Positions 8,256-61,633 of a stretch of DNA of 64,000 nt are shown piece by piece (the stretch's first letter is position 1; every line of letters begins with the position of its first letter). Position numbers and translations under genes: made by a program. Where the stretch lies: assembly GCF_007753265.1 (NCBI RefSeq), contig NZ_CP036349.1, positions 1,831,363 to 1,895,362 on the forward strand, written 5' to 3'. The notes beneath the pieces are model-generated. The model was not told the origin of the DNA, did no database searches, and was given only the letters and a program-made list of their open reading frames with translations. The DNA is from Botrimarina mediterranea. GTDB taxonomy: Bacteria > Planctomycetota > Planctomycetia > Pirellulales > Lacipirellulaceae.

Positions 8256-8468
8256 GGCGAGCCGGTAGCGTCACAGGATTATGCAACTGCTAGCAAATGG
8301 ACGTTTAACAAAGGACTTACGTCGATGATGCACTGCTGCGATAGCAGTCCGACGACGCTTAAGTCCTTATCTGAACGTGGTAACTGCTAGCCCTTGCATA
8401 ATCCTGGTCAGCGACCGGAGGGAGCCCTGAACCTGCTTCACTCCGGTCGCTGACGCTACCGGCTCGCC
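8256..8468. repeat. Host palindrome (GCGAGCCGG family) split by the 133-bp element
   Basis: The outer palindrome has arms reading GGCGAGCCGGTAGCGTCA and TGACGCTACCGGCTCGCC. Its left arm is interrupted after GTCA (8270-8273), and the GTCA is repeated at 8407-8410 where the arm resumes (GTCAGCGACCGGAGG). This is the pattern expected of a 4-base target duplication. An equivalent structure is at 26297-26510. Confidence 0.85.
8274..8406. mobile_element. MITE-like 133-bp palindromic element, copy 1
   Basis: The termini are inverted repeats: CAGGATTATGCAACTGCTAGC at the left and the complement of CAGGATTATGCAAGGGCTAGC at the right. Inside are further nested inverted repeats (AAGGACTTA with TAAGTCCTT, ACTGCT with AGCAGT), so the unit could fold end to end. 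It codes for nothing. A copy of equal length, identical by eye, is at 26315-26447. Identity of the element combined with divergence of the surrounding palindromes suggests recent movement or conversion. Confidence 0.8.
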
Positions 8469-12853: not shown

Positions 12854-13130
12854 GTCTGAGCCGTGGGCGGTACAGGATTATGCAAGGGCTAGCAGTTCGA
12901 CGTTGGGCAGATAGAAGAAGCGTAAGCGCGTTGTGTCCCCCTCCACCGCTTTCGGGGGAGGGGCTAGGGGAGGGGGTTGGAACCCTGGTACCCGCTTCAG
13001 CACCCTCCCCTAGCCCCTCCCTCTGAAGAAGGAGGGGGACACAACGCGCTAACGCTTCGTGGACGAAACCACCTAAACCCACTTCACACCGCTAGCCCTT
13101 GCATAATCCTGTACCGCCCACGGCTCAGAC
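12854..13130. repeat. Three-layer nested palindrome with related termini
   Basis: Outer arms 12854-12872 and 13112-13130 are a perfect 19-base inverted repeat (GTCTGAGCCGTGGGCGGTA), the same family as 45889-45955. Directly inside, at 12873 and 13111, sit the CAGGATTATGCAAGGGCTAGC termini of the MITE-like element. Inside those, 12925-12944 and 13031-13050 are a perfect 20-base inverted repeat, and the core carries GGGGCTAGGGGAGGGGG with its complement. The interior differs completely from the 133-base copies. Confidence 0.85.
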
Positions 13131-15162: not shown

Positions 15163-15885
15163 TTGGCGGATGTGATGGCGCATGTCGTCGGTTCGAAGCA
15201 GCACCGGCAGCCGTGGATTGACGCCGAGATCGAGCCTGAGCTCTACGCCTACCTGGAGCGTGTTTCACTTGGCCGTAGCGTTTCTAGCCTCGCTCTGATC
15301 CACGGAGCAACTTGGGGAAGTCTCACGCAGAGACGCAGAGACGCAGAGTTAGATGCCTTCAAGACTCACGCAAAGGCGCTAAGCCGCAAAGAACGCGTTG
15401 CTGTGCGATCGTTTGCGGCTACGCTCATTTCTACTTTGTCTTTGCGCCTTGGCGGCTTGGCGTGAGTCTTCGCTGCCGACCCTCTGAGTCTCTGCGCGAG
15501 ACGCTACGGCAAAATAAAGTACGCTATAGCGGCGTAGCCAAGACTATTGGTTGCACGCCGTTCGCGGTTGGCGGCGTCGAAGACCACGTGCACGTCGCTT
15601 GCGAACTATCGTGAACGGTGACAATCGCCGAGCTCGTCCAAGCGATGAAGCAGGGCTCGTCGAATTGGATGAAAAAGAGCACGGCGACGCCTTCCAGTCC
15701 TTTGCGTGGCAGAACGGTTGCGGCGTCTACTCCGTCGGCCAATCGCAACTCTCCGACTTGCGGCGCTACCTCGCCAACCAACACGAGCACCACCGCCGCG
15801 GTACTCGTCAGGACGAGTACCGCACGATCCTCGAGTGTTACCAAATCGAATACGACGTATGCTACGTCTGGGACGAATCCCGCTG
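15163..15885 (+). pseudogene. Y1 (IS200/REP-associated) transposase remnant, interrupted
   Basis: Three pieces of one transposase are recognisable. The N-terminus, HVVGSKQHRQPWIDAEIEP then ELYAYLER, lies at about 15181-15267. The middle, CTPFAVGGVEDHVHVACELS, with the HUH-type HVH motif, lies at about 15553-15611. The C-terminus, FAWQNGCGVYSVGQSQ, RRYLANQHEHHRR (likely catalytic Tyr) and the IEYDVCYVWD end, lies at about 15700-15875. Between pieces one and two sits a nested palindrome. Piece two ends in an in-frame TGA (15612-15614), after which the frame continues (TIAELVQAMKQGSSNWMKK) and then shifts. It cannot make an active enzyme. Confidence 0.75.
15321..15501. repeat. Nested palindrome inside the transposase remnant
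   Basis: The outer arms are AGAGACGCAGAG-type tandem units (about 15321-15349) and the matching CTCTGAGTCTCTGCGCGAGA end (about 15482-15501). The inner palindrome (about 15364-15468) is of the CACGCAAAGGCGC family. The same two-layer arrangement recurs at 25426-25563 and 48061-48211. Confidence 0.8.
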
Positions 15886-26296: not shown

Positions 26297-26510
26297 GGCG
26301 AGCCGGGAGCGTCACAGGATTATGCAACTGCTAGCAAATGGACGTTTAACAAAGGACTTACGTCGATGATGCACTGCTGCGATAGCAGTCCGACGACGCT
26401 TAAGTCCTTATCTGAACGTGGTAACTGCTAGCCCTTGCATAATCCTGGTCAGCGACCGGAGGGAAGCGGGTACACGGGGTCCCTCCGGTCGCTGACGCTC
26501 CCGGCTCGCC
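26297..26510. repeat. Host palindrome (GCGAGCCGG family) split by the 133-bp element, copy 2
   Basis: Left arm GGCGAGCCGGGAGCGTCA is interrupted after GTCA (26311-26314), and GTCA recurs at 26448-26451 before the arm resumes. The loop contains GAAGCGGGTAC (26463-26473). The arms and loop differ from copy 1 (8256-8468), yet the insertion point is the same. Confidence 0.85.
26315..26447. mobile_element. MITE-like 133-bp palindromic element, copy 2
   Basis: Base-for-base identical by eye to 8274-8406, same orientation relative to its host palindrome. No coding capacity. Confidence 0.8.
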
Positions 26511-33108: not shown

Positions 33109-33206
33109 GGCGGCGACCCGTGGGGTTGGCGGACCTGACGGCTCACAATGTAACGCCAGTGAGCAAAATGCGAGTTCTACTTTCTAAGCAGAGGAATCTC
33201 GCAAAG

Positions 33207-33266
33207 GCGAGCCGGGAGCGTGAGCGACCGGAGTTGGACCCGGTTCCCCGCTTTTCTCCGGTCGCT
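33207..33266. repeat. Palindrome, GCGAGCCGG family, right arm broken
   Basis: Left arm GCGAGCCGGGAGCGTGAGCG is intact, but the right arm stops after CTCCGGTCGCT (33256-33266) and continues into CGAGCATTTTGCA. Confidence 0.75.
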
Positions 33267-33349
33267 TGCGAGCATTTTGCATCCATCGTCGTAAGTGGAA
33301 GAACCGGATGCTAAGGCGTGCCGGCTGATCTTATGGGCTAGCGCTTATT

Positions 33350-33374
33350 AGCCGCGGGGCCTTAGCCCCCGGTT
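33350..33374. repeat. Dispersed 25-bp hairpin unit, copy 4
   Basis: Same as 11461-11485; it lies between the two broken palindromes. Confidence 0.85.
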
Positions 33375-33430
33375 CTTTGCCTACCGATTGGCATAACCTC
33401 TTGATCGCCAAAGCCTTCGATAAAGACCTG

Positions 33431-33504
33431 CAAAATGCTCGGCAGCGACCGGAGTCCGCCCTGCGTCCCCGCTTCACTCCGGTCGCTCACGCTCCCGGCT
33501 CGCC
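33431..33504. repeat. Palindrome, GCGAGCCGG family, left arm broken
   Basis: Begins TGCAAAATGCTCG, the complement of CGAGCATTTTGCA at about 33269-33282, then continues AGCGACCGGAG and an intact right arm ending GGCTCGCC. Confidence 0.75.
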
Positions 33505-42519: not shown

Positions 42520-42928
42520 GGCTATCTCTCCAACGGGGACCCCGGTGAACGCATCGTAAACGGAAACGGCGGCGGGGTCGCTGGGAGTGTGAGCGGTAGC
42601 GGGTGGAAAGCGGTCGGGTGATTCCTCCGGGAGCTGACGCTCCCGGCTCGCAGGCGGGCCAAACGTGCTCCACCCCAAACCAGCTCCGTGCGAGCCGGGA
42701 AGCGTCAGCTCCCGGAGCGCCCCGCCAAACCGCTCCCTACAACCGCGCAACTCCGCCCCATCCATCCCCAAAAAATCCCCCAAATCCGCGGCGCCCGCCC
42801 TCTGTGGCGGGGTTTTATCCCAAGGGGGGCCGTCTGCGCGGACGCGACCCCGCTTTGCCCCACGACTAGGATGGTGGGCGATTAGGATGAAGGATCGTCC
42901 CCCGCTTGGATTCCTGACGCCCGACGAC
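42520..42928. other. Spacer with paired inverted repeats
   Basis: No gene. It holds the inverted pair at 42625-42717. The remainder (up to 42928) is C/G-rich, and an in-frame ATG (42887) could extend the next gene by 14 residues. Confidence 0.6.
42625..42717. repeat. Inverted repeat, TGCGAGCCGGGAAGCGTCAG family
   Basis: About 28 bases at 42625-42652 are complementary to 42689-42717 with one base difference in length. A single arm of the same sequence is at 50283-50311. Confidence 0.8.
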
Positions 42929-45888: not shown

Positions 45889-45955
45889 GCCGTGGGCGGT
45901 AGCCCTCGGTGGGAACCCGCGTACCCGCTGCCCACCGAGGGCTACCGCCCACGGC
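45889..45955. repeat. Palindrome, GCCGTGGGCGGTAGCCC family
   Basis: Arms GCCGTGGGCGGTAGCCCTCG and the perfect complement, around the loop GTGGGAACCCGCGTACCCGC. Related copies at 61568-61633 and, split, at 12854-13130. Confidence 0.88.
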
Positions 45956-54764: not shown

Positions 54765-54842
54765 GGCGAGCCGGAAGCGTGAGCGCCCGGAGTGACCCCG
54801 CGTCCTCACTTCTACTCCCGTCGCTGACGTTCCCGGCTCGCC
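54765..54842. repeat. Palindrome, GGCGAGCCGG family
   Basis: Arms GGCGAGCCGGAAGCGTGAGC and its imperfect complement; loop contains GTGACCCCGCG. Between the PEP-CTERM gene and the zinc-ribbon gene. Confidence 0.75.
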
Positions 54843-61567: not shown

Positions 61568-61633
61568 GCCGTGGGCGGTAGCCCTCGGAGTGAAGTGAGC
61601 AGGCGCTGCACACCGAGGGCTACCGCCCCCGGC
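61568..61633. repeat. Palindrome, GCCGTGGGCGGTAGCCC family, copy 2
   Basis: Same family as 45889-45955 with slightly changed arms; it lies between the LD-carboxypeptidase and purU genes. Confidence 0.85.

What the first reader, a model, noticed from the sequence alone, without database searches (positions are those of the whole stretch)
8256..8468. 133-bp MITE-like palindrome nested in a repeat palindrome, with GTCA duplication
Directly visible: an element bounded by CAGGATTATGCAA inverted repeats interrupts the left arm of a GCGAGCCGG-family palindrome, and GTCA flanks it on both sides. It has no coding capacity but extensive internal pairing. This is the footprint of a non-autonomous transposable element that uses other palindromes as targets.
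Basis: partly seen in the sequence, partly recalled or inferred. Interest (0 to 1): 0.7.

Follow-up and report, generated by a model that had tools for sequence, protein, structure and literature searches.

The report
Mini-transposon family inserting into palindromes
A 133-base non-coding mobile element sits at a fixed spot inside a repeated palindrome of a planctomycete-type genome, and its likely parent insertion sequence picks targets by their mirror symmetry; this matches a known kind of behaviour, seen here in a new family.

Summary
A 133-bp element (8274-8406, ends CAGGATTATGCAA) lies in the left arm of a palindrome (8256-8468) between GTCA copies. Joining the flanks with one GTCA gives exact 28-bp arms. 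The genome holds nine full copies, seven identical and two with one difference. The same ends bound 236-267-bp MITEs and a 968-bp IS with a PF01609 DDE transposase. Of 57 insertions read in five genomes, 46 have perfect 4-5-bp duplications. Target choice is sharper than 'palindromes': the duplicated 4 bp are the spacer of a smaller dyad, CCGnnnGC-N4-GCnnnCGG, found once in each arm. The fixed letters are conserved; the middle three are free and pair near the chance rate, which favours symmetric duplex reading by a dimer over hairpin recognition. Five related ISs use dyads with G at +7 (110 of 110 half-sites); a distant relative (G276, one site) does not. IS insertion at the symmetry axis of REP palindromes is known (ISRm22, ISPsy8; PMC1525189, passages read). 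So this is a MITE/IS pair, a new member of a known kind. No exact orthologous empty site was found: G001 lacks palindrome and MITE at that locus.

The parts
8256..8273 (+). outer half of the left arm of the target palindrome, ending in the first GTCA copy (8270-8273)
8274..8406 (.). 133-bp MITE, TIR CAGGATTATGCAA, no coding capacity; 9 full copies in the genome
8407..8410 (+). second copy of the GTCA target duplication
8411..8468 (+). rest of the palindrome: inner left half-arm, main loop, intact right arm with an unused target dyad at 8443-8462
12873..13111 (.). 239-bp MITE with the same ends, in a family-2 palindrome (flanks TGAGCCGTGGGCGGTA / TACCGCCCACGGCTCA; hybrid junction GGTA/TACC)
26315..26447 (.). 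second 133-bp copy in the window, GTCA duplication, palindrome 26297-26510
33270..33440 (.). differently ended MITE-like element (GAGCATTTTGCA ends) at the same dyad position of the same palindrome family (33206-33504)
42627..42646 (+). unoccupied target dyad CCGGGAGC-TGAC-GCTCCCGG
45890..45954 (.). unoccupied family-2 palindrome with two intact dyads (45890-45909, 45935-45954)
54765..54842 (.). unoccupied family-1 palindrome, dyad 54771-54790 intact, right arm diverged
61569..61632 (.). unoccupied family-2 palindrome with two intact dyads

Best explanation
The feature is a non-autonomous element (MITE) of a small IS family with a PF01609 DDE transposase. The transposase encoded by the 968-bp copies most likely acts in trans on the shared ends. 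It inserts them with a 4-bp stagger at the symmetry axis of CCGnnnGC-N4-GCnnnCGG, so the duplicated 4 bp are the spacer between two inverted half-sites. The site occurs once in each arm of an abundant REP-like palindrome, which is why the MITE appears nested in one arm. The probable basis is that the two halves of a dimeric transposase-end complex each read one half-site of duplex DNA. Shown: copies, shared ends, shared duplication length, shared target, motif. Inferred: trans-mobilisation, dimer reading, duplex rather than hairpin recognition.
For: Nine 133-bp copies with 0 or 1 difference. The first 22 bases of one IS end equal one MITE end, and 15 bases of the other IS end equal the other MITE end. 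The four 968-bp copies L063-L066 hold an uninterrupted 320-codon frame that matches PF01609 above its cut-off (copy L063). The aligned transposases have invariant D103, D175 and E236. The model (mean pLDDT 83.6) has piggyBac transposase as its one PDB match at E <= 0.001 and Tn5 transposase at rank 7 (E 1.2e-2), both at low TM-scores of 0.38-0.39. Perfect duplications of 4-5 bp at 46 of 57 insertions. In 23 A-type insertions (MITEs and IS together), half-site positions +1, +2, +6, +7, +8 carry 45, 46, 45, 46 and 46 of 46 identical letters, while +3 to +5 are free and pair 8, 10 and 14 of 23 times against 7.1, 10.0 and 9.4 expected. The dyad occurs 13 times in the window against 1.3 expected, and 10 of these lie in the palindromes by my reading of their positions and surroundings.
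Against: 11 of 57 junctions lack a perfect duplication of 4 bp or more: five differ at one of four letters (L004, L007, L073, L129, L133) and six at two to four (L003, L061, L065, L070, L104, L134). Of the six, L065, L070 and L134 join two arms of a palindrome, and L104 two hairpins of one MITE; they look like recombination between copies, but that is inference. A-type targets are homologous repeats, so they are not independent (26 distinct of 46 half-sites). Pairing at +5 (14 against 9.4) is above chance expectation. With one mismatch allowed, the dyad is no longer enriched in the window (27 against 22.0). L003 lies in no recognisable palindrome and has no duplication. G276 L142 has TACT but no dyad. 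Transposition was not observed, and no orthologous filled/empty pair was found.
Confidence: 0.85

Rival explanations
1. The transposase recognises DNA structure: an extruded hairpin or cruciform, with the loop cut and duplicated.
For: At 40 of 57 sites at least 7 of 8 flanking positions pair about the duplication (half-step allowed) against 87 of 14,411 background centres. In three of four group B sites and all six G436 sites the duplicated 5 bp are the loop between arms that pair at 7 or 8 of the first 8 positions, and in B the arms differ between sites but still pair.
Against: In the A group, with 23 sites, the middle of the stem pairs near the chance rate while the letters at the other positions are fixed. 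The A dyad lies in mid-stem of the large palindrome, where extrusion would leave it duplex (inference).
Confidence: 0.2
2. The palindromes are part of the mobile element (REPIN-like unit or long TIRs) and move with it.
For: At the G001 locus palindrome and MITE are both absent. Five Y1_Tnp matches are present in the genome.
Against: The same MITE lies in family-1 and family-2 palindromes and in either arm. Palindromes occur in genomes without a match to this transposase, e.g. G001 (36 hits) and G013 (60 hits). None of the 5 Y1_Tnp loci has the four palindrome patterns tried within 1.5 kb. The duplication is internal to the arm.
Confidence: 0.05
3. The 133-bp unit is a structured RNA gene or regulatory cassette, not a transposable element.
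For: Strong fold, z -13.6, for the 213-base stretch; near-identical copies.
Against: No Rfam match at gathering threshold in the window; ends shared with an IS; target duplications; same target as the IS.
Confidence: 0.02

Closest known systems
ISRm22 of Sinorhizobium meliloti (IS4 family in Tobes and Pareja 2006, PMC1525189, passages read)
   Same: transposase given there as Transposase_11 (that this is an old name of PF01609 is recalled), all 9 chromosomal copies in REP palindromes, insertion at the palindromy axis, three hybrid direct repeats ascribed to recombination
   Different: 6-bp duplication there, 4-5 bp here; no MITE partner in the passages read; sequence homology to ISRm22 was not tested directly. 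In plasmid records the best tblastn match of IS-A is E 1e-5 and none covers over 54% in the 25 rows listed
ISPsy8 (IS3 family), same paper, same passages
   Different: different transposase family
MITEs mobilised by a parent IS (general kind; prokaryotic review PMC10969869, passages read)
   Same: short, TIRs, target duplications, no coding capacity
   Different: very strong dyad target here; that review also tells of IS1111 inserting in a palindrome of the QMITE2 repeat, so nesting as such is known

Membership tests
MITE (non-autonomous IS derivative) | short, no transposase, terminal inverted repeats | tested here: met
   133 bp, exact 13-bp TIR
MITE (non-autonomous IS derivative) | multiple dispersed copies with target duplications | tested here: met
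   9 full copies; 6 of 9 with perfect 4-bp duplication, 2 of the other 3 differ at one letter
MITE (non-autonomous IS derivative) | ends shared with an autonomous IS in the same genome | tested here: met
   968-bp IS, 22 and 15 terminal bases shared with the two MITE ends
MITE (non-autonomous IS derivative) | mobilised in trans by that transposase | not testable with these tools
   needs a transposition assay
REP-targeting IS (ISRm22 / ISPsy8 kind) | all or nearly all copies inserted at one fixed position of REP palindromes, at a symmetry axis | tested here: met
   22 of the 23 A133, A968 and A240 sites fall at the dyad of the two palindrome families by inspection; L003 is the exception; L061 (1,127-bp composite, hybrid junction) is not in the 23
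IS4 family | duplications of about one helix turn and YREK motif (PMC2266710, passages) | tested here: not met
   4-5-bp duplications; the YREK motif was not searched for
IS5 family | match to a curated IS5 transposase model above its cut-off | tested here: not met
   best IS5 model 29.9 (IS-A) and 30.4 bits (IS-B) against a cut-off of 110; IS1182 39.6 against 270 and IS982 33.9 against 130 for IS-A. PF01609 is above cut-off for both
REPIN/RAYT | palindrome flanks a Y1_Tnp (RAYT) gene | tested here: not met
   0 of 5 Y1_Tnp loci have the four palindrome patterns within 1.5 kb; mobilisation of the palindromes from a distance is not excluded

The most novel reading that the evidence does not exclude
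A family of planctomycete-group ISs and their MITEs finds targets by dyad symmetry with a shared G at +7 on each side, the duplication being the spacer or loop. Separate elements (A, and the differently ended C) exploit the same genomic palindromes, and element B has inserted in a hairpin carried inside an A-type MITE, so that repeats serve as nested landing pads. For B and G436 the recognised feature may be the hairpin itself.
Probability: 0.2. Interest if true: 0.6.

Novelty: new member of a known kind. Interest (0 to 1): 0.4.

Why it matters
It gives a clean natural data set for how a DDE transposase chooses palindromic targets: within one protein family the half-site letters, the spacer length and the free positions can be compared. 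Landing in extragenic palindromes would also let the elements spread with little harm to genes; that last point is inference and was not tested.

Tried and rejected
REPIN/RAYT origin: 5 Y1_Tnp matches, none with the palindrome patterns nearby. RNA gene: no Rfam match. Hairpin recognition as the general rule: my first idea (note), weakened. Orthologous empty site: G001, G002 and G003 carry the downstream gene; only G001 aligns upstream by eye, and it lacks palindrome and MITE. Clustering of 25 element positions in the genome: at most 4 in 64 kb, 258 of 5,000 simulations as clustered, so not claimed. Profile search of solved structures: none at E <= 1. Whether the palindromes belong to the GTAG- or CGTC-tagged REP superfamilies that PMC3733652 (passages) reports from Planctomycetes was not tested.

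Left out of the 57-site tally: L067 (decayed, one exact end), a truncated IS-A copy at 5206859-5207262 beside an N, L118 (contig start, in-frame stop), L119 and L089 (contig ends inside the site; by their flanks the same locus), L137 and G408 L144 (ends not found), G043 L091 (partial match, not examined), other contig-end matches in G040, the two G037 copies (read by eye only in the output: GCAA and TTGC), and the C-type MITEs. One search scored at most 6 candidates per genome, so further copies there may be missed; the end-pattern searches found six full pairs in G436 and four in G417, the ones used. L064 is in the tally although its right flank repeats that of L063 up to an N and is probably an assembly artefact; L062 holds 100 N. 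L146 and L153 have nearly the same flanks in opposite orientation and may not be independent.

Full report
OBSERVATION. The 133-bp unit 8274-8406 is bounded by CAGGATTATGCAA and its inverse and flanked by GTCA. When the flanks are joined with one GTCA, a 76-bp palindrome with exact 28-bp arms is restored, which is the strongest local evidence that the unit was inserted into a pre-existing palindrome. The strand folds far better than shuffles (z -13.6), as expected of a palindrome within a palindrome.

COPIES. The genome (G000, 5.87 Mb, one contig) holds nine full copies: seven identical, two with one difference from the window copy. Among 39 genomes searched, own included, only the own genome has it. 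The 13-mer end occurs 49 times against 0 for the reversed control. Besides the 133-bp units it bounds nine 236-267-bp MITEs, five ISs of 946-968 bp (one with 100 N) and one 1,127-bp composite. The composite has the ends of a MITE like L076 and carries a second IS (B, 955 bp by the copy comparison, 951 bp between the ends used) at an internal hairpin, with part of the interior of the MITE missing.

TRANSPOSASE. IS-A encodes a protein matching PF01609 (E 2.8e-13). NCBIfam gives only sub-threshold matches to the IS1182, IS982, IS5 and IS4 models. IS-A and IS-B are 47% identical. Relatives, own genome counted: 4 of 43 genomes in the family at E 1e-10, 6 of 392 sampled from the phylum at E 1e-30. 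In the named collection 21 loci, 18 of them in Lacipirellula limnantheis I41. D103, D175 and E236 are invariant in 4 and in 8 aligned proteins. The predicted model (mean pLDDT 83.6, pTM 0.83) has one PDB match at E <= 0.001, piggyBac (E 3.6e-4), with Tn5 transposase at rank 7 (E 1.2e-2); TM-scores are low (0.38 and 0.39), so this supports an RNase H-like DDE fold and no more.

TARGET. I read 57 insertions: 9 of 133 bp, 9 of 236-267 bp, 5 IS-A, 1 composite, 4 IS-B, 18 L. limnantheis, 6 G436, 4 G417, 1 G276. Perfect duplications of 4 or 5 bp flank 46 of 57; of the other 11, five differ at one of four letters and six at two to four. Random junctions of the same flanks give a 4-bp match in 63 of 11,400. 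About the duplication, at least 7 of 8 flanking positions are complementary at 40 of 57 sites (half-step allowed) against 87 of 14,411 other centres in the same flanks. Low-scoring sites are L003 and G276 (4 of 8) and L008, L063, L064, L143 and L151 (5 of 8).

SEQUENCE OR STRUCTURE. For the 23 A-type sites (A133, A968, A240; the composite left out) the half-site reading outward from the duplication is GCnnnCGG: +1 G 45 of 46, +2 C 46, +6 C 45, +7 G 46, +8 G 46, with +3 to +5 free. Pairing at +3 to +5 is 8, 10 and 14 of 23 against 7.1, 10.0 and 9.4 if independent. This argues for symmetric reading of duplex letters. The dyad CCGnnnGC-N4-GCnnnCGG occurs 13 times intact in the window (1.3 expected); 10 are in the palindromes and 3 elsewhere by my reading. 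With one mismatch allowed the excess disappears (27 against 22.0 expected). The four G417 sites show GC at +1/+2 and GG at +6/+7. G is at +7 in all 110 half-sites of A, B, G436, G417 and L. limnantheis; G276, not in that count, does not fit. In G436 and in three of four B sites the 5-bp duplication is the loop of a perfect or near-perfect hairpin, and for B (4 sites only) pairing exceeds what shared letters give, so hairpin recognition is not excluded there. In L. limnantheis the palindrome axis lies half a step from the centre of the 4-bp duplication.

THE PALINDROMES. Two families, GGCGAGCCGGGAGC-GTCA-GCGACCGGAG and TGAGCCGTGGGC-GGTA-GCCCTCGGAG, align without gaps about the same dyad from GAGCCG on, and a full palindrome carries the dyad twice, once per arm. 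The pattern GAGCCGGNAGCGTNAGCG occurs in 13 of 39 genomes, own included: 86 times in G000, 36 in G001 and 60 in G013; the last two have no match to the transposase at E 1e-10. The palindromes therefore do not depend on this IS being present.

EMPTY SITES. Intact paralogous palindromes are common. The orthologous locus in G001 has neither palindrome nor MITE, so it is not an exact empty site. Some junctions with non-matching ends (L065 GTGA/TTAC, L070 GGTA/TACC) join outer halves of both arms, as expected if two insertions in one palindrome recombined, and L134 (TCCG/CGGA) is of the same inverted kind; hybrid repeats of ISRm22 were likewise ascribed to recombination (PMC1525189, passages).

KNOWN OR NEW. 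Tobes and Pareja (PMC1525189, abstract passage and other passages seen) report REP association for IS3, IS110, IS4, IS256 and IS5 family elements, with ISRm22 and ISPsy8 at a symmetry axis. Literature searches were made; of their listings I opened passages of PMC1525189, PMC3733652, PMC3196728, PMC2266710 and PMC10969869 only, and saw no description of this planctomycete family there. One search (Lacipirellula with 'insertion sequence') returned 0 papers. The library lacks most subscription journals and ISfinder was not available. I file it as a new member of a known kind.

Noticed in passing
window 33206-33504; L162, L166, L078: A second, differently ended MITE-like element (GAGCATTTTGCA-type ends, about 170 bp) sits at the same dyad of the same palindrome families; no autonomous partner was seen among the 7 exact end matches.
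   Followed up: partly
window 15528-15686 (G000:C1:1846890-1847048): Y1_Tnp (RAYT-like) match with one in-frame stop, one of five Y1_Tnp matches in the genome.
   Followed up: no
L061 (G000:C1:644137-645263): IS-B at a hairpin inside an A-type MITE, itself in a palindrome, with part of the MITE interior missing: three levels of nesting.
   Followed up: partly
L064 (G000:C1:5205844-5207262): Probable assembly artefact: the right flank of one IS copy repeats that of L063 and ends at an N followed by a truncated IS copy.
   Followed up: no
G436 loci L140, L146, L150, L153, L156, L158: An IS in another family of the same order inserts in hairpins of the CCCTCTCCC-N5-GGGAGAGGG type with the 5-base loop duplicated.
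   Followed up: partly
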